Source: Ulva prolifera
Lineage: Eukaryota; Chlorophyta; Ulvophyceae; Ulvales; Ulvaceae
DNA length: 64,000 nt
Direction of reading: 5' to 3'
Assembly: GCA_023078555.1 (NCBI GenBank)
Contig: CM041196.1
Coordinates: 4,402,001-4,466,000, forward strand
The position numbers and the translations under genes are program-made. This document shows, piece by piece, positions 8,274-61,111 of this stretch. Below the pieces are notes generated by a model. That model worked only from the letters and a program-made list of their open reading frames with translations. It made no database searches and was not told the DNA's origin. How positions within the stretch are numbered: the stretch's first letter is position 1; every line of letters starts with the position of its first letter.

Positions 8274-8846
8274 ATGAAATGTGCTATTCAATGTGGTCAA
8301 ACGGCGAGCTCGTCAATGAAGAAGTCAAATTACCTAGGTGATGTCGGAGCCCCCGATGGAGCCAGAGACGCTGCCACCCGGGCATCGGCGGTCACTCGCA
8401 AGCCCTGCCGCACGAGAGTTCATGCCCAAGCCTTGGTTGAGGCACCTGTGCGACATGTGGTCGACGGCGTGACAGCTGACAAGGTCGGAGTCGCGTGGGA
8501 CGACGCTGAGGCCACGGCATTCTTCCAACTGCACCAATCCCAGCCCATCGAGCGCACCACGCACATTCCTGCTTCTGCCATCAAGGTGCGACTGCTCGCA
8601 CTCTTTGAGAATGTTATTTATCATAAGCTCTGCGCTTTGAATGAGTACAGTCCTGGAGCCCCCACAGACGGGGGCAGAGACTGGCCCGTTGACGATCAAC
8701 AATTGCAAGCTTGCTGTGCTGGCTCGACATTCGATTGGGATGTGAAGGTAAAGAACAGAAAACCTGGGTGTCCCATTTGCGAGCATTTGAAGAAGCCAGG
8801 GCACAGCAGCAATGCTAAATTCCTCGCATATCACATTCGAAAGTAG
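8274..8846 (+). CDS. hypothetical open frame with a CxxC...H motif
   Basis: An uninterrupted frame of 190 codons. The middle part (TADKVGVAWDDAEATAFF) and the end (PGCPICEHLKKPGHSS) look protein-like, the latter with a possible zinc-binding Cys-x2-Cys followed by His. A GTGCGA donor-like site lies at about 8586, so only part may be coding. The opposite strand is also open over 174 codons, which lowers confidence. It lies about 600 bp upstream of the carotenoid oxygenase but does not resemble its N-terminus. It could be the remains of a mobile-element gene. Confidence 0.25.
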   Translation: MKCAIQCGQTASSSMKKSNYLGDVGAPDGARDAATRASAVTRKPCRTRVHAQALVEAPVRHVVDGVTADKVGVAWDDAEATAFFQLHQSQPIERTTHIPASAIKVRLLALFENVIYHKLCALNEYSPGAPTDGGRDWPVDDQQLQACCAGSTFDWDVKVKNRKPGCPICEHLKKPGHSSNAKFLAYHIRK

Positions 8847-9167
8847 ATGGACCAACAAGGCTTTTCGTCAGGTGCATGAATGCCTGTGTGAAACAGCAAC
8901 GGACAAGCCCAAGCGGTCAGCCTTGATGCACTGCCAGCTCCATCACGCACGCCGGTTCTATGTATGTAGACCGTATAGCACAACACCCGTGGCGGAGACA
9001 GCATGCCACCGAACAAAACATGCGGCACCGGCCATGCCCAAAACGGGCTCGGTGACTGGATTCTTGAAAGTATGTCTTCACTCATTGACAGGTGTACAGA
9101 ACCCACCCTTCTCTCTGCTGTGGAAGCGAGAAGCGGTGTCTCGCTTGTACACCAGAGAGCAGTGGCA

Positions 9168-9197
9168 GCTCCCACTGCTTGCGCTCCCACTGCTTGC
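9168..9197. repeat. perfect 15-bp tandem duplication
   Basis: GCTCCCACTGCTTGC occurs twice with no spacer (9168-9182 and 9183-9197). It belongs to a set of four exact two-copy duplications of 15-17 bp in the window. Confidence 0.8.
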
Positions 9198-9417
9198 GCC
9201 GGTTGCCGGTGCCGTGGACGCACGGGCAGGCCCGCTGCCACAGGCGCACTTGGAGGGACGTCCCAAGCAGCTCGCATGCAATCTCGACGCGTTGCACTGG
9301 ACGTGTATGCAGCCCGCGCCCCTCGGCCGGGCCGTTCCTTCCCCCCCAGCGTCTCAGCTAGACTGCCGAGGACGCCCTCGGCCATGCATGCGTGTGACGG
9401 TGAACGTCGGCACATGC

Positions 9418-12400
9418 ATGCAGGGCACCGTCCCGGCCGACCTGCGGGGCACGCTGCTGCGCAACGGACCCGGCAACTTTGAGTTCGGCGAGCAGCGCAT
9501 CTCGCACCCCTTCGACGGCGACGGCTTGATCTCTGCCTTCTCCTTCGACAGCGGCAGTGTCCTCATGCGCCGCAAGTTCGTGCGCACCAAGGCCATGAAG
9601 GACGAAATGGCCGCCCGTGCGCCCCTCCACCACTCTGTGACGACCACTGCCGCCGCAGCCTGCCGCACCCCAACTTCCGTCCACTCTGCACAGAGGCTCT
9701 GACCGCGACGCGTTTCGCGGTCCATGACTTGTGGCATATGCTGTGCTGAGATGTGTGCTGTGCGCTGTGTGCTGTGTGCTGTGAGCGAGTGTGTCGACCG
9801 TCGCGGACGCCGTGCAGAGCGGCTGCTGTACAAGGGCGCGTTCACCGTCGGGGACCCCTCGGGCAGCATCCTCGGACCGCTCGACCTGTCGGTGCGGCAG
9901 CCGGCGAATACAGGCGTGCTCGACTGGGCGGGGCGCGTGCTGGCGCTGTACGAGCGTGACCAGCCGCACGTGCTCGCAGACGACCTCGCCACCGCCGGCC
10001 GCTCCAACGTCGGCGTCTGGCAGGGTGCGCCGCCTCTGTGTTACAATTTCAATTGAATATGCCAAGCGCTGCCGCTCCCGTGCCATTTTCACACCTGGGC
10101 CCCCGTCTCCTTGTGTCTTGCGCGAGTCTACTCGACCACGACCCAGAACAGCACATCCTGGGAACCCTGAGATACTGGGACATGTGTACCACCCGAGGAA
10201 CGTGCGCACAGCTGACGGCACTTCAAGACAACCGCAATGCCACTCGCAGACATGGAAAGACGTCAAGGTCACACACGGACCCGTTGTACTCTGTGCTGGT
10301 GTGCAACGACGCTCACCTGTGCGGAACTCCTAAGTCTTGGAGGCGCACATCCAGCGCGAGACTTGCATGAAGATCGGGGTGTGCTACAGTAGGGGGGTTC
10401 GTGGTGCAGGGGGCGACAACATGGCGGCGCACTACCGCATCGCCCTCGAGGCCGACGGCAGCAAGCGCCTCGTCACCTTCAACTCCATCGAGCGCGGCGC
10501 CGACGCCGCCGTGAAGATCCTGGAGGTCGACGAGGACGGCCGCAAGGTGCGCCGCGCCGCGCTCCGGCCGCCGTGGCTACAAGTGCACAGATACATTCAC
10601 ACCTGACCCGATCCTGCGCAACGCTTGCACTGCCACTCCCGCCTTATGCGGTGCGCGCGGGATGCAGCGAGCCGGCAGCTTGCATGACTGAGATGGGGCC
10701 GCATTTTGTGTCTATAGGTGCACGAGACAGAGGTGACGTTGCCGGGGGCGGCGTTTGGCTTCTTCCATGACATCCTCGTCACCGACAACTACTACGTCCT
10801 CCCGGAGAACCCCATGAGCCTCGACCTCGTCAAGATGGTCACAAAGTACATGTTCGGCCGCGCCTGCATCGCCGAGTGCCTCTACCTCGACTCTGCCAAG
10901 CCGATGAAGGTGCCGCCCTCACGTTCCGCATGCTATGCGTGCTGCCCACGATGTGCGCAATGTGCATGCTGTGCGCGCTGCTTGTGGTCAGTATGCTGTG
11001 CGCGCTGTGCATGCTGTGCATGCTTTGCGCGCTGTGCATGGATTTCTCGATGTTTGTTTGCTGCACATGCTGTGCGTGCCATGCTGTGCGCACGCGAGCA
11101 GTTGGAGCAACTCAGCTGGGGCGGCTGGTGTGGTCGCTCTCAATGCGGGCCCCTGGTGGCTGCCTGCACGGCAGCAGCATGTTCCTGTAGCAGTGTTGCT
11201 GTGGTGGTTTGGGCGCCAAGCGCTGCTGCAGCATTATTACTCTCAAAGCCGCGTGTACTCCATCGCCCCCGCACTTTCCCCCGTCCCCCCCCCATAACCT
11301 CCATCCTGAGGCGCTCCCCCTGTTGACAGCTGGAAGGATACATGCGTACACGATTCGTCGCAGGGCTATTGCGGCATGCCTCTCAACAGCGGCGCCAAGT
11401 GCACTACGTCTCAGACCCCTTACAACCCTGTCCATGCACGCAGATCCACTGCATCCCGCGGCCCGGCAAGCGTGGCCGGCGGCGCGTCGTCTACGAGGCG
11501 GCCAACAAGTTCGCCTTCCACCACATCAACGCGTGGGAGGCTGAGGGCGACGCCATCGTCTTAGACACATGCGCCTCCGACTCCATCGACTTCTCGAAAA
11601 CCCTGGACTCAAACCCACTGCCAATGCTGCGCGACCGCTCCGCCAAGACGACACCGCGGCGGCTCGTGATGCGGGGGGGCAACCGCCGCGTGCAGGAGTA
11701 CGACATGGGGGTGAAGGCGTACACCGAGCTGCCGGCGCCGCTGCAGCCGGAGGTCACCGGGCGCCCCTACAGCCACTTCTTTGCTATGGTGCGTGCCTGC
11801 TATGGGAGAGCGGACTCCGGAGTTGTATGCCAGCAGACACACGCGACCACATACGTGGAGCATACAATTCAACGATCATGCATGCACTTGTTTGCGCGCA
11901 CGGACCTCTGCTCTCTGGCTTGCTGTTGCGTGTTTCTTGCCCTGTCAGAGTTCGCAGAGCAGAGGTTTTGAAGGCTGCCGCCTGAGGAGTTCGCGTGCTG
12001 CAGACCGGAAGGAGCGTGCCGAACCCTGACTCCCTACACAGCTTCGCGCAGAGCGTGTCCCGGATCGAGCTGCCGCCCTCCCTCGGCGTCGCCGAGCCCT
12101 TTGATTCCGCGGAAGTCAAGGTCACCGAGTACTACCCAGGTGCGCGCTGTGCGCTACGTGCTGTGTGCTACAACCAGCAGCAAGCAGAATCAGGCTGCGA
12201 CCTACATCGTGTTCAGACGCATCGCGCCTCTTGCATGCCAGGCCAGTCTGGCATGCATCAGCGTCACTCCCGAAACATGTGTCAATGTCATGATATAAGC
12301 AGCAGTGATCTTTGCGAGCAGCCTACCGTGCAGAAATATGCATGAGCGCGTTACCTGCAGAACTAGGTAGCGCTGCCTGCAGGTGACTATCGGTACTGCG

Positions 12401-30579: not shown

Positions 30580-33500
30580 CTACCGCCCACTGAGCACCTC
30601 CCACCGCAGCTCCGAAGCCGCGACCTGGAACATCCACAGCAGGTCGATCGAGGAGACGCCGAGCTCCAGGTGCGCTGCGATCATCTTCGCCTGCTGCACC
30701 TCCGTAAGCACCCACGCCGGCAGCGTCGTCAGCGACACAAACTCGTGATGCATGTGGTTGTCCATCTCATGCACATGCGCCACCTGCTCCACCGCGTCCT
30801 CCACCTCCTCCAGCGCCCCCCCCGCGGCCCCGAGCAGCCTCACCGCGGCCTCCCCCCCATCCACCCCCCCCGCACCCGCGGCACCGCCGCCGCGGCTGCT
30901 CTTCCGCGGCGGCTGCGGCGCCAGGCCAAACACATGCACATCCACCGCGGCCCCTGCGCCGTCTTCGTACAGCGTCGGGACGGGGACCGGGTGCGAGATC
31001 ACGGACGAGATCGCGAGGCCGCTGCGCACACAGCAGCTGTTGCCGCTGCTGCAGGTCTCCTGCGCCTCTGCCTTGCCCCGGCCGCCGCCGCTCATGGCGC
31101 GCCCCCGCGCTTCGTGTACCCCACCAGTGTCTGTGCTGCGGCTGGCATCGGGTGCTGTGTTTGAGGGCTCGCACACACCGGCGAGCGGGCTCGGAGCGGG
31201 CTGTGTTTGCGGCACAGAGGTCGATCCGGTGGATCCCACCGCCGACGTGGCGGCCACGGTGGCAGGCGTGCATCTCCCCACACCGCCAGAGCCACTGCAG
31301 CTGCTGCCGTAGCCGTTGTGGCCATCGCAGATGGAGGAGACGGCGCGGAGGAGCGGCAACGGGATGTCGTCCGCAGAGGGGAGGGCGGCATGGAGGCGCG
31401 AGAGGGCGGCGCCGAAGTCGCGGTCGAGCGAGAAGCGGCGGCGGAACCAGCAGCGCCAGCGCGCCGCGAACTCGGCCTTCTGCGCGGCAGTCAGCTGGAG
31501 GTACCGGAAGACCTTGTTCTGGAGGCGCTGCATCTGCAGCACGCACGGCGGCGAGTCAGCGCATCTGAGGCGGCTGTGGTGTGGGGAAGCGGGGTATACC
31601 ATGAGCTGCTGCGGCCATGGCTGCGCTGGCTGTGTCATGCGAGGATGCGCTGTGCAAGTTGTTCTGTGAATCAGCGCCTTTGATCAACTTGGGGGGCAGC
31701 AGCAGTAGCGGTCGAGACGTGGTGCAGCAACATCAGCCGCACGTCGCCGCGCAGTGTCAGCGTTCTGTCCAGGCACCGACACACAGGCAGCAGCATTGGC
31801 TCTTTGCAGAACCAGGGATGTCCGAATACCCTTGGCTTCGGCGATTTGGTCCTCAGGATGAATTGGAGCATTGATGATTGCGCAAGCTAGCTTTCTGCCA
31901 TCGATTCCGTCTCAATCGACCGTTCTCTCAATACCCAAGCCGTATCAGCATGCAAGAGGAGGTCAGTACAAAGACGCGTCACCGCATCACGCAGTGTGGT
32001 TGGGGCATGCTAAGTGGAAGGCCTGGCATGGTGGAGTAAAGCACATCTACATGGACATAATCTGGCATACTTCATTATGATCCGGCAGCTTGTGCTCTGG
32101 TCAAGACATTACGATCCGGCAGCTTGTGCTCTGGTCAAGACATTATGATCCGGCAGCTTGTGCTCTGGTCAAGACATTATGATCCGGCAGCTTGTGCTCT
32201 GGTCAAGACATTATGATCCGGCAGCTTGTGCTCTGGTCAAGACATTATGATCCGGCAGCTTGTGCTCTGGTCAAGACATTATGATCCGGCAGCTTGTGCT
32301 CTGGTCAAGACATTATGATCCGGCAGCTTGTGCTCTGGTCAAGACTGCGCACATGCACGACTGAGCACACAGCGTGCGACCAGGTCTGCTTCACCGACGC
32401 GAGTTGCGAATGTCCCCATAGACACCACTACGCATTCCATGTGTGCATGCAGCAATGCATGGTCCCTCCGCAACGCATACAGCAGCCAGCGGCATGCACG
32501 AAGCACTGGCACATGCCACCGCCGGGCGTCCATAGTCGAGCCCGTGTGCACAACACAGCATGTGCACAGCACCTTGCGGCCAACAACACCAATGAGGCGC
32601 CAGCACGTGAGGCCAGCGGCGAGGTGGGAGGCGCCAGCAGGCTCGCACCTGCACAGGAGAGGTCGAGACGTCCCGCTCGCTCATGAACATCCGGCGTATG
32701 GCCACCGGTGCAAACTGGAACAGCAGGCGGCAGGAGATGCTGGGGGTGATCATGAGATCGAAGATGCGCTGCTTCGTCTCGGCGAGCGTGCGCGCCGCCC
32801 TCGCCTCCTGCATGCCACCCCGCACCCCTCCGCCACACACGTGCCCTCGCTCTCCCTGGTTCACCAATGCATGCCAGGTGTGCCGAGTTCACACAGGCGA
32901 ACTTCATCGTGCTCATTCAATGTGGCAGTTGCATGCATGCGCGGCATGGCCCGCCGTGCGCTGGCGCCTCTGTGTGGACCACGTTGGGGTGTGCAGTCAT
33001 GCGGCCGCCAGGGTGCCCATGCGACAGAGCGTAGCCCGGCAGACTTGGGGGCATCACACAGACCTTGACGCCGCCGCCAGGCTGCAGCAGTGCGAGCGCC
33101 TGAAGAGCGCACAGGCACCCCTCGGACGAACGAAAGACAAGCTTCAGCACCGCGCACATGCATGCAGCCAAGGCGTCCCTGTAGCCACAGCAGGATGGCG
33201 GCGGAGCATGCGAGAAGCCCGTGCCGTACCTGTGGCGGGGGCTCGTGGAGTGCGGCGGTGAAGAAGTGCAGCAGAACTTCCATTGCGACCTTCATCGCCA
33301 CGTCCAGCTGAACCCAGCACATCTCTTCGCCCTCACCCTGACCCTCCGTGTCTTGTGCGTGCAGCTCCTCCATAGGCGGCTCTGCTGCGGCTTGCTCTGA
33401 GGAGCTGCTGCTGGTTTTGTTCCCTGTCCCAGCCTCCTTCCCTGTGGGCCCCCCCGCGGCAGCCGTGGCCTTGGCGGTGATGTCATCGAGCGTGCCCTGA

Positions 33501-34901
33501 ACCACCCGGATCGCTTGCACGCACACACGGCGCCACACGGCGTGCGGCAGCGACGCGCGGTATCGGCGCAGCAGCGGCGGCAGCAACGCGGCGATCGCGT
33601 CGTGTAACGGGCACGCCTCGGCGATGCCGCAGCGTAGCACGAGGTGCCGGCATGCAGCAGCGTCTGGGAGCGGCGCCACGCGCTGCGGCTCCTCCTCCGC
33701 CACGTGGCCAGAGGGTGCGCACCGGGTCTCCGCCGAGATGCCGGCGGAACCTTCTAGAAGGAGCTCATACTCACGCACAAGGAATGTCGCCTCGATCGAG
33801 ATCGCGAGGTAGGCGACCGTCATCGAGAGGCAGCACGGTGCGGAGGTGATGCCGGCGGAATGGGAGAGCGGGCGAGGGGAGGGGGCGGCGGCGCTGGGCG
33901 CTGCGGCCGGCGGGACGTTGAAAGGCAGTTGTACCAGGAAGCAGATGTCTGAGGGGTGGCACGCGAGGCGGTCGGACGTGGCGCGGAGGAACGACTGCAG
34001 CGCCTCGGTGACGCTGTGGGGGTCGCAGGGGCTTCGCGGGGGCCCAGGGGGCATGTGCATGGCGACATCGGCGTACGAGATGGGGCAGCAGTGCGGGAAC
34101 GCGGCGGGCGGGCGGGGTGGCGTCAGGGCGTCGCCGAAGATGCTGTAGCGGCGAACAGTGCTGCGGACTAGGGGGGCGGCTTTGGGCAGGGGTGGTGGGG
34201 GGATCGGGCGGGGTGTCGGGGCAGGCACAGCAGCGTTGATGCGGCCTAGCAGTGCGCTGCGGGTGTTCCGGAGCCGGCGCGCCTCGGTCAGCATGTGAGA
34301 GAGCCTGCTCTGACGGTCCTGGATGTTGGACTCCAGCTCTTGCCGCTGCTTCTGCATCAGGCGGACAGCGGTCGACCATCAAAATGTGCTCGCATGGCGC
34401 ATGCCGGAAGGTAGCCTCGGCAGTGCATGCAGTTCATGTTGACATGGCAGAAATTGCAGCGGGGCTGCAACTAGCATATGTGATGTACCTGGGAGTGCAT
34501 GTGCAAGGCCAGCAGGACAGGTGAACAGTGGCGTGGCAGTGCATGCATGCTTGGACAGCGATGTTGTGTGGGGCATATGCCTTGCACTTCTCTCGGTACC
34601 GGGCCTGCCCGCGACGGTTCTTGGCGCGCAGCTTCTCCAGCTTGGGGTCTACTGGCGTCTGCAGCCCGTTGAGGATTGCGGCTTGGGGCGAGCGGCCCAG
34701 CTCTGCCGATGCCAGGGCTCCGACGCTGCTGTGCGAAAGGGTGGGGACGAGATCATCGCAACCAAAATCTACACTAGGAGCGGGTAGGATTGTATCTGGT
34801 AAGCTGACGAGCGGATCCTCTACGAAGTCAGCGAGAAACTGTGTAAAGTCGTCCTGTAGCAATTCATCCGGTGGACACTGGTCCAGCAATTGCTCGTTCA
34901 T
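30580..34901 (-). CDS. bZIP transcription factor, tandem copy 1, 851 aa
   Basis: Four exons, 34901-34581, 34351-33230, 32807-32649 and 31533-30580, total 851 codons plus stop. Exon 1 encodes an acidic N-terminus (QDDFTQFLADFVEDP) and the basic region KNRRGQARYREKCK, with Asn and Arg at the N-x7-R positions that read DNA. Exon 2 continues KQRQELESNIQDRQSRL, giving a zipper with L, R, M, L, L at heptad positions 18, 25, 32, 39 and 46 from that Asn. After a Pro-rich linker come conserved unknown segments (RRYSIFGDALTPPRP, HPSDICFLVQLPF), exon 3 (KQRIFDLMITPSISCRLLFQ) and exon 4 (MQRLQNKVFRYLQL to VLSGR). The long C-terminal region is not a known domain to me. The first intron has a GC donor (AAG|GCATAT), conserved in copy 2. 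The third intron holds a 34-bp minisatellite. Nuclear DNA-binding regulator; target unknown. Confidence 0.85.
32073..32344. repeat. minisatellite, eight copies of a 34-bp unit
   Basis: Eight head-to-tail copies of a 34-nt unit beginning CATTATGATCCGGCAGCTTG and ending GGTCAAGA, identical except for one base in the second copy (CATTACG). It lies in the third intron of the first bZIP gene. Copies are contiguous with no spacers, so it is not a CRISPR array. Confidence 0.95.
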
Positions 34902-36033: not shown

Positions 36034-39000
36034 CTACCGCCCACTCAGCACCTCCCACCGCAGCTCCGACGCTGCGACCTGGAACATACACAGCAGGTCG
36101 ATCGAGGAGACGCCAAGCTCCAGGTACGCTGCGATCATCTTCGCCTCCTGAATCTCCGTCAGCACCCACGCCGGCATCGTCGTCAGCGACACAAACTCGT
36201 GATGCATGTGGCTGTCCATCTCATGCACATGCGCCACCTGCTCCACCGCGTCCTCCACCTCCTCCAGCACGGCCCCCGCGGCCCCGAGCAGCCTCACCGC
36301 AGCCTCCCCGCCATCCACCCCCCCCGCACCCGCGGCACCGCCGCCGCGGCTGCTCTTCCGCGCTGGCTGCGGCGCCAGGCCACACGCTTGCACATCCGCC
36401 GCGGCCCCTGCGCCGTCATCTTCGTACAGCGTCGGGACCGGGACAGGGTGTGATATCACGGACGAGATCGCGAGGCCGCGGCGCACACAGCAGCTGTTGC
36501 CGCTGCTGCAGGCCTCCTGCACCTCCGCCTCGCCCCGGCCGCCGCCGCTCATGGCGCGCCCCCGCGCCCCGCTCACCTCGCCAGTGTCCGTGCTACAGCT
36601 ACCGCCGACGGAGTGCGGCGGCTTGAACGCGCCGGCGAGCGGCTGGAGAGTTGGCGTGTGGGGCACAGGCGTCGATCCGGTCGACCCCTCGGCGGACGTA
36701 GCCGCGGGGTTGCACCAACCCGCAGAGTCAGAGCCGCTGCAGCTGCTGCCATAGCCGCTGTGGCCGTCGCAGATGGACGAGACGGCGCGGAGGAGCGGCA
36801 GCGGGATGTCGTCCGCGGAGGGGAGGGCGGCGTGGAGGCGTGCGAGGGCGGCGCCAAAGTCGCGGTCGAGCGAGAAGCGGCGGCGGAACCAGCAGCGCCA
36901 GCGCGCCGCGAACTCGGCCTTCTGCGCGGCAGTCAGCTGGAGGTACCGGAAGACCTTGTTCTGGAGGCGCTGCATCTGCAGCAGGCACGGCGGCGAGTTG
37001 GCGCAGCTGTGGTGGCTGTGGTGTACCAGGAGCTGCTGCGGCTGCGGCCGTGGCGGCACTGGCTGTGCAATGTGCGCACACAATGTGAATGCACAGGACA
37101 GCTGGCGTCGTTCTGTGACTGCATTCTCACACTCATACTTGTATGGGGTGCAGATTCTACGGGAAGCCGGCTTCAGGTGGGATGCGCATATGGGAGATCG
37201 GCAACATGCGGACTCGCAGCGTCAGCATGCTGTCCAGCCACAGTCTCATTCCCAAAGGCTACTTGTACATGACCACAGGGGTCTTTCAATGGGCTTGACA
37301 GGAGTGCTTACCACGCCTGTCTCAATCGCCAGGCCCTGTCCAGGATGTGGCCAAAGACGATGAAGAGCGGTACAGGGAGCCAGTACAAAGACACATCAAT
37401 GCATGTCACAGCTTGGTTGAGTGAGGAGGTCTGGAACAGAAACCTACTTGGACACAACCTGGTATTGTGAATTCTGGTCAAGCAACTCGGCAGCTTGTGC
37501 CCTGATGCATGCTCCAGACGACGCACACGGCCAAATGAACACAGCGTGTGGCACGTCCCGAACGCTGTTTCAGTACCACTAGGTGCTGCAATTGTCTACG
37601 TCCCCGTGGATGCGACCACGCAATCGTGAGTTAAGTAAAGTAAATCTAAATTTACTGAGCCGTATCCTATTGGACATTGACAACTCCGAGTTAACGAGAC
37701 CACATATGCCGAGTGAGTGCTTGCAGCCATGCATCACTCCTCCATGTTGCAAGCAGCAGCTAGCAGCATGGGCCAAGCACAAGCACATGCCGCCACGGGG
37801 GGTAGATGGTCAAGGCCATGTGTGGCGGCAAGCAAGGCAAGGCGAGTGCGCGGAGGCGGCGGTGGTACGGGAGGCTCACCTGCACTGGAGACGCAGCAAG
37901 TTCGTGCTCGCTCATGAACATCCGGCGCACGGCCACCGGTGCAAACTGGAAGAGCAGGCGCCAGGAGATGCTGGGGGTAATCAGGAGGTCGAAGATGCGC
38001 TGCCTCGTCTCCCCCGCCGTGTGCCTCGCCGTCGCCTCCTGCACGACGCAACAGCCGTCACTCCAAACAGACACATGCTTCACACACGATCTGCTGCCCC
38101 ATTTGCCGATGCATGCCGGGCGTTCCGCAGCTGAAGAGACTCCCGCTACGTGGATGCAACACCATGCATGCGACGGCTGAGATGGCGGTGGAGGTGCTGG
38201 TTGGCGTGAGCGGGCAGACTGCCCGTCGGGGTGCCCACGCCATCGATCGCGGCCAGGAGGACTCCGAGACACCACACACGTTCAGATACCAGACACCACA
38301 CACGTACAGATCCCTGCGCCGCTGCCGGGCTGCAGCGGTGCGGCCGCCCAAGACGATCTGCAGCACCGCACACATGCATGCAGTAGCACCGTCCCTGTAG
38401 CTACAGCAGGGCGGCGGCGGCGCATGCGAGCTGTGCCGGACCTGTGGCGGGGGCTCATGGAGTGCAGCAGTGAGGAAGTGCAGCAGGACTTCCATTGCGA
38501 CCTTCATCGCCATGTCCAGCTGCGCCCAGCACATCTCCGCGCCCTCTGTCTCTCGTGCGTGCAGCTCCTCCACAGGCGGCTCTGCCGCGGGCGCCAGGGT
38601 TTGTTCCGGGGTGCTACTGCAGCCGCTGGCCCCCGCCTGGGTCTCCTCCCCTGTGGACCCCCCTGCAGCTTTGGCGGTGATGTCATCGAGCGTGTCCTGC
38701 ACCACCCGGATCGCTTGCACGCACACGCGGCGCCACACGGCGTGCGGCAGCGACGCGCGGTATCGGCGCAGCAGCGGCGGCAGCAATGCGGCGATCGCGT
38801 CGTGTAGCGGGCACGTCTCGGCGAGGCCGCAGCGCAGCACGAGGTGCCGGCACGCGGCAGCGTCTGGGAGCGGCATCACGCGCTGCGGCTCCTCTACCGT
38901 TGCGCGTCTGGGGGTTGCGCATCCGGCGCCGGTCTCCGCCGAGACGCCGGCGCCTGCAGAATCTTCTAGAAGGAGCTCATGCTCACGCACGAGGAAAGTC

Positions 39001-40195
39001 GCCTCGACCGAGATCGCGAGGTAGGCGACCGTCATCGAGAGGCAGCACGGGGCGGAGGTGACGCCGGCGGAATGGGAGAGCGGGCGAGGGGCGGGGGCGG
39101 AGGCGGCGGCACTGGGCGCTGCGGCCGGCGAGACGTTGAAAGGCAGTTGTACCAGGAAGCAGATGTCTGAGGGGTGGCACGCGAGGCGGTCGGACGTGGC
39201 GCGGAGGAACGACTGCAGCGCCTCGGTGACGCTGTGGGGGTCGCAGGGGCTTCGCAGGGGCCCAGGGGGCATGTGCATGGCGACATCGGCGTACGAGATG
39301 GGGCAGCAGTGTGGGAACGCGGCGGGCGGGCGGGGTGGCGTCAGGGCGTCGCCGAAGATGCTGTAGCGGCGAACAGTGCTGCGGACTAGGGGGGCGGCTT
39401 TGGGCAGGGGTGGTGGGGGGAGGGGGCGCGGGGGTGGGGCATCCGCGGCGGCGCTGATGCGGCCTAGCAGTGCGCTGCGGGTGTTCCGGAGCCGGCGCGC
39501 CTCGGTCAGCATGTGGGAGAGCCTGCTCTGGCGGTCCTGGATGTTGTGCTCCAGCTCCTGCCGCTGCTTCTGCATGAGGCGGGTGGCTGTGTTAATCGCT
39601 TAAGCGGACCGCCAGGGCGGGACACGACCGCCCGTAAATAATATTGACAGTGCTCGTATTGCACATGCGGAAAGGCTGGCCCGGCAGCGCATGCGGTGCA
39701 CATTGACATGGTGGAGTTTGCAGCGGGGCTGAAGATTTCATATCATGTGAAGCACATGTGATGGACCTGGCAGTGTATGTGCAAGGGCCAGCAGGACAGG
39801 TGAATGGTGGCATGGCAGTCCAAGCATGCTTGCACAGCGATGTAGTTTGGGGCATGTGCCTTACACTTCTCTCGGTACCGGGCCTGCCCGCGACGGTTCT
39901 TGGCGCGCAGCTTCTCAAGCTTGGGGTCTACTGGCGTCTGCAGCCCGTTGAGGACTACGGCGTGGGGCGAGTGGCCGAGGTGCGCTGCAGCTTGGCCCAG
40001 CTCTTGCGCCGGTGCAAGAGCTCCGACACTGCTGTGCGAAAGGGTGGGGACGACAATATCGCAAGCAAAATCTACGCCAGGAGAAGGCATACTTGCATCT
40101 GGTATGCTGGTGAGGGGATCGTCTACGAAGTCAGCGAGAAACTGTGCAAAATCGTCCTGCAGCAGTTCACATTGGTCCAGCAATTGCTCGTTCAT
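36034..40195 (-). CDS. bZIP transcription factor, tandem copy 2, 854 aa
   Basis: Four exons, 40195-39860, 39569-38442, 38038-37880 and 36975-36034, total 854 codons plus stop. Structure and phases match copy 1 exactly; exon 3 is 159 nt in both. The basic region (KNRRGQARYREKCK) and zipper are unchanged. The N-terminus has an insertion (QELGQAAAHLGHSPHAV) and the exon 2 and exon 4 linkers carry small in-frame differences, as expected of two functional copies diverging. The first intron again has a GC donor (AAG|GCACAT); the second has GTCCGG and the third GTGAGC. The reading frame is open upstream to 40474, but copy 1 supports the ATG at 40195 (MNEQLLDQC). Dimerisation between the two products is likely but not shown. 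Confidence 0.85.
37473..37505. repeat. single degenerate minisatellite unit in copy 2
   Basis: TCTGGTCAAGCAACTCGGCA followed by GCTTGTGCCCTG matches one unit of the 34-bp repeat at 32073-32344 with several changes. It sits in the third intron of the second bZIP gene, so the ancestral intron had about one unit. Confidence 0.6.
37662..37710. repeat. dispersed 49-bp repeat, copy 2
   Basis: Same sequence as 23025-23073 (GTATCCTATTGGACATTGAC to CACATATGCC) with an indel-like difference near AGTTAAC. It lies in the third intron of the second bZIP gene and has no counterpart in copy 1 that I could find, so it probably inserted after the duplication. Confidence 0.65.
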
Positions 40196-45225: not shown

Positions 45226-45795
45226 AGGAGTGCCGGGACATCGCCGTTCGGCCTTTGGGCATGCGCACGCCTGCGGGCTGGACGTCGACGTAGCTAGGGC
45301 ACAGGTGTTGCCGCAGAGCCAGACCGCGCCATATGGTCTGCGGGCGGGGGTCCACTCCGGTGTCAGGCAGAGCCCAGACGTGCCACGGCCTGGCTCGTAC
45401 GTGCCTTGCGCCTGGTGCCAACGGCATCGCCTCCCTGCCGTCTGCCGTGGGGCCGCTCTACCACGCCCTTGCAATTGCAATGACGTGCACACAGGGTTCC
45501 GCGGCAAAGGCGCCGTGGAGAAGATCCTCGAGATGTCCGTTCGAATCGCCACGGGGAGTATGCATGTTCACAAGCTTAAGGCTGCCGGTGTGGTGGTCAC
45601 GCAGGGGCGATGCTGTGAACATCGAGGTCATGATTCCGGCAGCGAGCGACTATAGTGGGCGGATCCGTTCTCGCGAGAACGGGCAGCGGGACCACGCAGA
45701 CGTCCGTTCTGGTGCAACTTGTGCTAGCTAGACTCTTGTGCTACCTAGACTCGACAGCAAATCTGGTGTAACGCGCAGGTGATGGTCACACGTGT

Positions 45796-45826
45796 TACAA
45801 AAGAGTGAACGGGAGAAAACAAACAC
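45796..45826 (-). mobile_element. micro-insertion 1 (31 nt, 16-bp TSD)
   Basis: The 31-nt insert contains TACAAAAGAGTGAACGGGA followed by GAAAACAAACAC and is flanked by the perfect 16-bp direct repeat TGATGGTCACACGTGT at 45780-45795 and 45827-45842. The same sequence recurs at 59057 and 60881 with unrelated flanking duplications. Drawn on the minus strand because the constant end corresponds to an RNA 3' end reading CTCTTTTGTA. Confidence 0.85.
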
Positions 45827-46244
45827 TGATGGTCACACGTGTACTTGTTGACAAGGATCCGGGTCCTGATTCAGTACTCTCTTGTAATACAGGATCCGGA
45901 TGATCGACGTCATGATACCGGCACGCTGGCCAGCACGCTTCACGCGTGCACATATCTCAAGATATAAGTCGCCATATGATATCGACGCAACACCGTGTGG
46001 AGGGGTTGACCTTTTGGTCCCAGATGGTGTCCTGCTGCTGCTGTAGCGTGAGTCGAGCGGGGAGACTCGGCCGCGGAGTCCATCCACGGCATATCTCGAG
46101 ATACATGATGTCCGGAGGCGTGCATTTCGCTCGGTATAATCGCGCCGTCATGCGCGCAGACATATATGGCGTGCACCAAGCGGAGATAATATGTTGTGAT
46201 TACCTATATCATATGTATAGGTGTGGTGTAGGCAAAAAATAATT

Positions 46245-59043: not shown

Positions 59044-59056
59044 CAGCGCATATGGT

Positions 59057-59090
59057 TGCAATTACAAAAGAGTGAACGGGAGAAAACAAA
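59057..59090 (-). mobile_element. micro-insertion 2 (34 nt, 13-bp TSD)
   Basis: TGCAATTACAAAAGAGTGAA continuing CGGGAGAAAACAAA, flanked by the perfect 13-bp direct repeat CAGCGCATATGGT at 59044-59056 and 59091-59103. It shares 28 consecutive bases with micro-insertion 1. Confidence 0.85.
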
Positions 59091-60250: not shown

Positions 60251-60880
60251 GCAGCTATGCATGGCTGTGTCTACTACTGCGACACGATGTTGTACAGATC
60301 CGCATAGGTGCCCGGTCCCCGATCAGCAGTTTCGAAAGGCGAGTCTGCGCATGCTTTCGAACGTTCTCCTGATCATGACGAATTGATCAATATGTCAAAG
60401 CAATTGCTTTAAAAAAGGAACCCTTTAGCACCTCTAATAAGAGGTTATAAACAGAATTGACATTATAATAGTGAAGTAATAGATCATTTTCAAGATGATC
60501 AAATTGGAATTTACAGCTCTAATATCGAGGCGGCGCAACGCGATCGAGGCGTCGATCGAACATCATGACGCGCCGACACTGTGCAGCTGCATGCAGATAC
60601 GTATCTCGACATACGTAGCATACGTAAGGCACACCATGGTGCACGGACGAACATGCACAGGCCGCGCGTGCATGCATGCCCGGCCAGTGCTCTACAAACC
60701 GCCGGTTTTCCCGCTGAAATAGACGTTTTTCCTGAAAATGCCGCCAAGGTTTTGAAAAGTCGACGGTTTACGCCGCTGAAAATGGGCTGTTACAGCAAAG
60801 GCCAGCGGGCGCAGCCCGCTGTGTCTCTGGCGTCTGAGCGGTCTTGCCCGCTGAAATGTTGCCCGCGAAGCGCGCGGGAT

Positions 60881-60900
60881 TATTACAAAAGAGTGAACGG
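60881..60900 (-). mobile_element. micro-insertion 3 (20 nt, 14-bp TSD), nested in hAT element 2
   Basis: TATTACAAAAGAGTGAACGG flanked by the perfect 14-bp direct repeat GAAGCGCGCGGGAT at 60867-60880 and 60901-60914. It is the shortest of the three copies, ending where the others continue with GAGAAAACAAA, and it lies inside an older hAT element. Confidence 0.85.
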
Positions 60901-61111
60901 GAAGCGCGCGGGATGTGTTCACATAGATAATGCTGCGAGCACACGAGCGAGCGAAGCGAGCGATCTTGACGCGCAGCTGCACCTAGGTGCACAGTGTAGG
61001 AGAGATAATGCCAACTTCGTCTGCCCAAGTCGAGCGGGGCTTCTCTCTGCTCAAGCTGCTAATTGGTGACCGCCGCATATCGACGCATGTGGCCACCCTT
61101 CTCAAATACGT

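What the first reader, a model, noticed from the sequence alone, without database searches (positions are those of the whole stretch)
45780..45842. Ultra-short insertions (20-34 nt) with long target-site duplications: a new micro-retroposon family
A 31-nt insert is flanked by a perfect 16-bp duplication. The same sequence family sits at two other unrelated places (59057, 60881), each with its own perfect duplication (13 and 14 bp). One side always carries TTACAAAAG or TACAAAAG, while the other side stops at different points, so copies are 5'-truncated with a fixed 3' end reading CTTTTGTA(A) in RNA sense. Insertions this small with duplications this long are not explained by DNA transposons. 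Target-primed reverse transcription of a small RNA, or extreme 5' truncation of a LINE/SINE tail, fits best.
Basis: partly seen in the sequence, partly recalled or inferred. Interest (0 to 1): 0.9.

Follow-up and report, generated by a model that had tools for sequence, protein, structure and literature searches.

The report
Extremely short copies of a LINE
The tiny 20-34 base insertions are real, and they are the last few bases of an ordinary kind of jumping gene (a LINE retrotransposon) whose copying into the genome seems usually to stop almost as soon as it starts.

Summary
They are not a separate micro-element. The motif occurs 921 times in the 88.9-Mb genome (reversed control 0). In sense it is the 3' end of a LINE of about 3.9 kb with one 1199-aa reverse-transcriptase ORF and a 3'UTR of about 106 nt. 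Eleven complete ORFs at 99-100% identity were listed, 10 without internal stops. In a sample from contig C1, 56 of 93 copies carry flanking repeats of at least 8 nt, against 0.7% with flanks swapped. Of these 56 inserts, 52 spread over 20-180 nt and four are 393-860 nt; median 60.5. Site 3 lies in another repeat; the two sister copies read base by base, of 39 matched, are empty sites. So: extreme 5' truncation during target-primed reverse transcription, joined by microhomology. The kind is known. The unusual part is the skew: loss per nucleotide over the first ~280 nt is about 12-18 times the later rate (exact-word counts).

The parts
45780..45795 (.). target-site duplication, copy 1, site 1 (TGATGGTCACACGTGT)
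   Evidence: exact 16-bp repeat
45796..45826 (-). 31-nt LINE 3' end, site 1; sense strand is minus, the LINE's 3' terminus (..CTTTTGTA) lies at 45796; 5'-truncated at 45826
45827..45842 (.). target-site duplication, copy 2, site 1
59044..59056 (.). target-site duplication, copy 1, site 2 (CAGCGCATATGGT)
   Evidence: exact 13-bp repeat
59057..59090 (-). 34-nt insert, site 2: LINE 3' end plus 5 extra nt (TGCAA on the + strand) between the LINE terminus and the duplication
   Evidence: the joined flanks match only this place in the genome
59091..59103 (.). target-site duplication, copy 2, site 2
60867..60880 (.). target-site duplication, copy 1, site 3 (GAAGCGCGCGGGAT)
   Evidence: exact 14-bp repeat
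60881..60900 (-). 20-nt insert, site 3: LINE 3' end plus 2 extra nt
   Evidence: absent from two sister copies of the host repeat read base by base
60901..60914 (.). target-site duplication, copy 2, site 3

Best explanation
The inserts are severely 5'-truncated copies of a LINE (non-LTR retrotransposon) of this genome. The LINE is about 3.9 kb: a 5'UTR of roughly 130-170 nt, one 1199-aa reverse-transcriptase ORF, and a 3'UTR of about 106 nt ending ..GTTTGTTTTCTCCCGTTCACTCTTTTGTAA. Its enzyme nicks one strand of a target with no evident sequence motif and primes reverse transcription at the 3' end of its RNA, often with 1-9 extra nucleotides at the start. In most events it stops after some 10-180 nt. 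The short cDNA end is then joined to the other strand, nicked some 8-22 bp away, often through 1-4 nt of shared sequence. Fill-in of the staggered nicks gives the long duplication. Shown here: parent, common 3' end, duplications above control, empty site, length distribution, microhomology excess. Inferred: target-primed priming, early stopping on full RNA (about 0.6; the second and third rivals below concern this step only), and a restriction-like endonuclease as the nicking domain. The confidence given is for 'insertions that are 5'-truncated copies of this LINE'.
For: Parent: L034 1294-4893(-), 1199-aa ORF, Pfam RVT_1 42.8 bits (cut-off 29.6), ending DAGLEDAILPD* directly before the 3'UTR that carries the motif. 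11 complete ORFs at 99-100% identity among 45 matches, 10 of the 11 without internal stops (39 of 8586 first-look candidates scored, so a lower bound). Same 3' end, and longest flank-to-flank repeats of 10-14 nt, at 4 of 4 complete copies examined (no shuffled control; two of the four share a flank and one match lies in an AT repeat). Repeats of 8 nt or more in 56 of 93 usable copies versus 0.7% with swapped flanks. Inserts: 14 of 56 are 40 nt or less, 28 are 60 or less, 52 are 180 or less, the longest 860. Microhomology at the 5' junction: 30 of 41 copies share at least 1 nt (11.1 expected), mean 1.66 versus 0.36. Empty site for site 3: L117 and L118 have one copy of the target repeat (1 and 2 nt different from the window's) and no insert; the window copy has 34 nt more, which is 20 + 14.
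Against: 37 of 93 sampled copies show no repeat of 8 nt or more within the limits searched; they may be old, nested or joined without one, and this was not resolved. 12 of 53 copies have 2-13 extra nt at the 5' junction instead of microhomology. The endonuclease is supported only by motifs: one CCHC-like stretch at aa 989 and one GD-x13-D stretch at aa 1053 where a PD is usual (the usual motif is recalled). The excess of short copies could partly be survivorship, if long insertions were lost from this genome.
Confidence: 0.94

Rival explanations
1. A separate micro-retroposon: a small RNA of its own (20-35 nt, or SINE-like), sharing the LINE's 3' tail, is mobilised in trans by the LINE enzyme.
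For: SINEs that share the tail of a partner LINE exist (recalled). Copies of 40 nt or less are numerous: 14 of 56 with flanking repeats.
Against: Insert lengths are spread from 20 to 180 nt and beyond without a dominant class. Longer copies continue into the LINE's coding end (for example L003, L008, L015, L016, L023, L024). No other upstream sequence was noticed in the 32 copies printed, but none was sought systematically.
Confidence: 0.04
2. The LINE enzyme copies short 3' fragments of degraded LINE RNA to their very end, rather than stopping early on full RNA.
For: Lengths fall off smoothly, as random RNA breakage would give. 12 of 53 junctions have extra nt at the 5' side, as end-to-end template jumping can leave.
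Against: Microhomology at the 5' junction is in excess (30 of 41 against 11.1 expected), which fits an interrupted cDNA annealing to the target. Not decisive.
Confidence: 0.2
3. Truncation is ordinary, and long copies have been selectively removed, leaving mostly short ones.
For: The host genome is only 88.9 Mb. Approximate divergence from the reference copy does not separate the classes clearly: 0.003 for 19-40 nt (such short matches can show little), 0.044 for 40-80, 0.061 for 80-200, 0.033 for over 200 nt.
Against: The 56 short copies scored keep both repeats at the ends of the insert, so they were short at birth and not made by later deletion. Selection against longer insertions remains possible.
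Confidence: 0.2
4. Chance direct repeats, or DNA-transposon footprints.
For: None found.
Against: Swapped-flank control 0.7%; 921 copies with a fixed end; a reverse transcriptase parent; an empty site.
Confidence: 0.01

Closest known systems
5'-truncated LINE-1 (L1) insertions of human and chimpanzee, with microhomology at the 5' junction (PMC2912911, passages seen; Zingler et al. 2005, Genome Res, not held, seen only as a reference-list entry in PMC2881922)
   Same: fixed 3' end, variable 5' truncation, flanking duplications, microhomology and extra nucleotides at junctions
   Different: L1 ends in poly(A) and has an APE-type endonuclease (recalled). In PMC2912911 full-length copies are 16.2% of L1 insertions with 5-30 bp duplications; here the 5'UTR word is found 18 times against 921 for the 3' word (not the same way of counting). 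That paper reports that truncated L1 copies sometimes have short duplications (9 bp or less); here the scored copies have 8-22 nt, with 8 as the threshold.
R2-type LINEs with restriction-like endonuclease
   Same: one ORF with RT and C-terminal CCHC-like and PD-like motifs. The only reverse transcriptases among the PDB matches are three R2 sequences (E 0.006-0.013, RT part only). R2 is also known for untemplated nt at the 3' junction (recalled).
   Different: no target motif at 53 sites; the P of the PD motif is G; sequence similarity to R2 is very weak
Utopia, U2-snRNA-targeting LINEs (PMC4640811, start of abstract and passages seen)
   Same: LINEs with restriction-like endonuclease and one protein, found widely in eukaryotes
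   Different: the Utopia families described there insert in U2 genes or U2-like sequences; this element's sites are dispersed and show no shared motif
Introners (PMC9860276, search listing only)
   Same: many short insertions in diverse eukaryotes, driven by transposable elements
   Different: the three window inserts lack GT..AG at both ends by inspection and share their 3' end with a LINE; splice sites partly supplied by the duplicated target, and splicing itself, were not examined

Membership tests
LINE / non-LTR retrotransposon | reverse transcriptase in a complete parent copy | tested here: met
   RVT_1 42.8 bits vs cut-off 29.6; 11 complete ORFs at 99-100% identity among 45 matches
LINE / non-LTR retrotransposon | no LTRs: different 5' and 3' ends | tested here: met
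   5' and 3' ends of 4 complete copies printed and compared by eye
LINE / non-LTR retrotransposon | common 3' end with variable 5' truncation | tested here: met
   exact-word genome counts 921, 327, 124, 18 at about 19, 125, 278 and 3800 nt from the 3' end
LINE / non-LTR retrotransposon | target-site duplications of variable length | tested here: met
   8-22 nt in 56 of 93 copies, control 0.7%
LINE with restriction-like endonuclease (R2-like clades) | C-terminal CCHC plus PD-x(12-14)-D/E endonuclease (motif recalled) | tested here: inconclusive
   motif-level only, GD in place of PD; no Pfam match and no relevant PDB match of the C-terminus
LINE with APE endonuclease (L1, RTE, CR1 and others) | exonuclease-endonuclease-phosphatase domain | tested here: not met
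   Pfam scans of the whole ORF and of two parts found RVT_1 only
R2 / Utopia site-specific elements | insertion at one specific target | tested here: not met
   53 insertion sites without shared motif, highest column 0.19 bits
SINE | Pol III-derived head joined to the LINE tail | tested here: inconclusive
   longer copies run into the LINE's coding end and the window has no Rfam match; no promoter or tRNA-head search was made
Introner | insert is spliced as an intron | not tested
   no RNA data; inspection of the ends of three inserts only

The most novel reading that the evidence does not exclude
This LINE has two-phase target-primed reverse transcription: an abortive phase in which the enzyme lets go within about 10-280 nt, and a processive phase that a minority of events reach, much as RNA polymerase makes abortive transcripts before promoter escape. 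The genome would then keep a record of several hundred abortive events, many marked by a duplication, down to inserts of about 13 nt. Many 10-60 nt insertions with flanking duplications in other genomes could be such LINE scars going unrecognised.
Probability: 0.4. Interest if true: 0.6.

Novelty: new member of a known kind. Interest (0 to 1): 0.4.

Why it matters
Insertions of 10-60 nt with long duplications are easily missed by repeat finders and counted as indels of unknown cause. Here the cause can be named because the LINE's 3' end is a distinctive sequence rather than poly(A). That gives an unusually clean count of how far copies extend before they break off, and shows that a LINE can be a source of many small insertions.

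Tried and rejected
A separate micro-element was disfavoured on the spread of insert lengths. A target-site motif was sought and not found. The high-scoring RT loci L051-L070 were looked at as possible parents and rejected: 19 of 20 have an ICLAYLDD-type RT and 18 of 20 (not L058, L063) a TDASD stretch that looks to me like the RNase H of LTR elements (by eye). The LINE itself is not among the 150 matches scored. A coarse search for other families of micro-inserts in the 230 kb held gave 54 direct-repeat pairs with the family motif and 245 without; the recurrent words in the top 25 shown appear to lie inside LINE coding parts, so no second family was noticed. RNA folding of the last 127 nt gave z = -1.84 (8 of 200 shuffles as stable), no strong structure to explain stops. 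A scan of viral contigs with six peptide patterns of the protein found nothing. NCBIfam gave only a group II intron RT match far below its cut-off (24.5 against 300 bits). Site 1's empty site was printed but not searched. The organism was not identified: the 18S search gave no answer twice.

Limits of the counts: the sample is the 97 fetched copies out of the first 100 listed places, all on contig C1 (of 921 in the genome); 4 were set aside because the fetched stretch ended at the copy, leaving 93. Flanking repeats were sought with at most 9 nt between them and the LINE end and within -10 to +14 nt of the end of homology to one reference copy. Three segmental duplicates were removed for the junction analysis (53 of 56); the length figures are for all 56. 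Genome counts use exact words, so diverged copies are lost: word retention in sampled copies that reach the position was 19 of 24 at about 107 nt and 7 of 8 at about 260 nt; it was not measured for the 5'UTR word. Extra nt at the 3' junction (48 of 56 copies) can in part be diverged duplication, as at C1:2553 by eye. Of the 13 held copies (of 110) with the 13-mer but not the 19-mer, several are mutated rather than truncated. I make no claim that hyper-truncated LINE copies are not in print: paper searches returned no paper; others returned 1, 11, 4, 2 and 2 listings, of which passages of three papers were read. The library lacks most subscription journals, and L1 truncation down to little more than the poly(A) is recalled as known.

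Full report
What was reported and what is there. The common 19-mer is far above chance in the window (3 found, 0.02 expected) and is a genome-wide repeat: 921 exact copies, 447 forward and 474 reverse, against 0 for the same letters read backwards.

What it belongs to. Reading other copies in the sense direction shows that the motif is the end of a longer sequence..ctgccggactga gttgtgagtgcggttgtagtgttcgtgtg..gattcggtttcagtgtttgttttctcccgttcactcttttgtaa. At C1:1591000-1597000 (L034) this follows directly on a 1199-aa open frame with a reverse transcriptase domain (Pfam RVT_1, 42.8 bits, cut-off 29.6). The genome search lists 45 matching stretches; 11 cover the whole ORF at 99-100% identity, 10 of these without an internal stop (only 39 of 8586 first-look candidates were scored, so this is a lower bound). 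The 5'UTR word is found 18 times. The complete copies examined at C1, C2, C4 and C6 share the same 3' end, and the longest repeats between their two flanks are 10-14 nt (no shuffled control). C1 and C4 share flanking sequence and the C6 repeat is AT-rich, so C2 (13 nt) is the cleanest. The element is therefore a LINE of about 3.9 kb with one ORF.

Are the short copies insertions? Of 97 copies fetched from C1, 93 were usable; a repeat of at least 8 nt flanks the insert in 56. With left flanks swapped among copies the rate is 0.7%. The other 37 of 93 have no such repeat within the limits searched. The median repeat is 12 nt, range 8-22. For site 3 a stronger test was possible, because it lies inside another repeat: the joined flanks match 39 places besides the window. 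Two of these, fetched and aligned, have a single copy of the target repeat (differing by 1 and 2 nt from the window's) and no insert; the window copy is longer by 34 nt, which is 20 nt of insert plus 14 nt of duplication. Only these two were read base by base. The joined flanks of site 2 match only the window itself, and site 1 was not searched.

Length distribution. Between the two repeat copies, 52 of 56 inserts spread over 20-180 nt and four are 393, 404, 516 and 860 nt (the first two are segmental duplicates of each other). 14 of 56 are 40 nt or less, 28 are 60 or less, 40 are 100 or less. Exact-word counts along the element are 921 at 19 nt from the 3' end, 327 at 125, 124 at 278 and 18 at about 3800. 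Converted to loss per nucleotide these are 0.98%, 0.63% and 0.055%; the late rate projected back would predict 143 copies at 19 nt where 921 are found. These counts are approximate, but word retention of 19 of 24 and 7 of 8 cannot account for a roughly 12- to 18-fold change of rate. Below 19 nt the picture is thinner: 13 of 110 held copies have the 13-mer but not the 19-mer, and several of these are mutated rather than truncated. The clearest ultra-short case is C1:632465-632540, where 13-nt inserts alternate with a 16-nt repeat three times.

Junctions. At the 5' junction, 41 of 53 non-duplicate copies have no more than one extra nucleotide, and 30 of the 41 share at least 1 nt with the target (11.1 expected), 12 share at least 3 (0.81 expected). 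The other 12 have 2-13 extra nt. No base position around either nick carries more than 0.19 bits.

How it most likely works. The LINE enzyme nicks a fairly arbitrary site, primes on the 3' end of its RNA, frequently adds a few nucleotides, and in most events stops early. The unfinished cDNA end is captured at the second nick, some 8-22 bp away, with help from microhomology. Long duplications with tiny inserts follow naturally, because the duplication length is set by the distance between nicks and the insert length by how far the enzyme got. Shown: parent, insertion, lengths, microhomology. Inferred: priming mode, early stopping, endonuclease type.

What it resembles. Microhomology-joined 5' truncation is known for human L1 (PMC2912911, passages seen; the review PMC2881922, passages seen, cites Zingler et al. 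and Symer et al. for microhomology in mammalian elements). The protein has a C-terminal CCHC-like motif at aa 989 and a GD-x13-D stretch at aa 1053, reminiscent of the restriction-like endonuclease of R2-type LINEs (motif recalled). Among four PDB matches, three are R2 proteins (E 0.006-0.013, RT region); the top one, geranylgeranyl diphosphate synthetase (E 0.0016), falls in an Ala/Gly/Pro-rich stretch before the RT. The C-terminus alone finds nothing relevant, so membership in an R2-like clade is open. No APE domain was found.

Verdict. It is an extreme form of a known process by a LINE that I could not assign to a named family. The steep early loss is the part worth a specialist's attention; whether it reflects the enzyme, the host, RNA fragments, or loss of long copies cannot be settled here.

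Noticed in passing
L071 8351-8453 (G000:C1 about 632465-632540): Three 29-bp units: a 16-nt target repeat alternating with a 13-nt LINE end whose first 2-4 nt differ from unit to unit. Either repeated insertion at one site or tandem duplication of one micro-insert.
   Followed up: partly
window about 60790-60990: Site 3 lies inside another dispersed repeat with 39 other matches in the genome, 5 at 99% and 23 at 90-92% identity to the joined flanks.
   Followed up: partly
window 30580-34378 and 36034-39599: Two neighbouring pairs of similar ORFs (367 and 505 aa; 395 and 513 aa) look, by eye, like a tandem duplication of a two-ORF unit about 5.4 kb apart.
   Followed up: no
window 32039-32378: Tandem array of a 34-bp unit: 8 registered copies of the 102-nt reference, six of them 98-100% identical.
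   Followed up: no
G000:C1:774426: A composite insert whose core reads as a partial palindrome of the LINE end (TTACAAAAGACTCTTTTGAAAAGAGTGA), flanked by a GGGACCCCGGTG repeat; may be a fold-back product.
   Followed up: no
G000:C1 pairs 2553/1254793, 4349416/4363386, 4338127/4507889: Pairs of insertions with the same flanking repeat, probably duplicated segments rather than independent insertions.
   Followed up: partly
window 8791-9702 (+): ORF with a match to the RPE65 (carotenoid oxygenase) family, E 1.6e-23.
   Followed up: no
L051-L070: Many intact reverse transcriptase ORFs of another kind, LTR-like by eye, sit in this genome; 150 RVT_1 matches were scored of 452 candidates.
   Followed up: no
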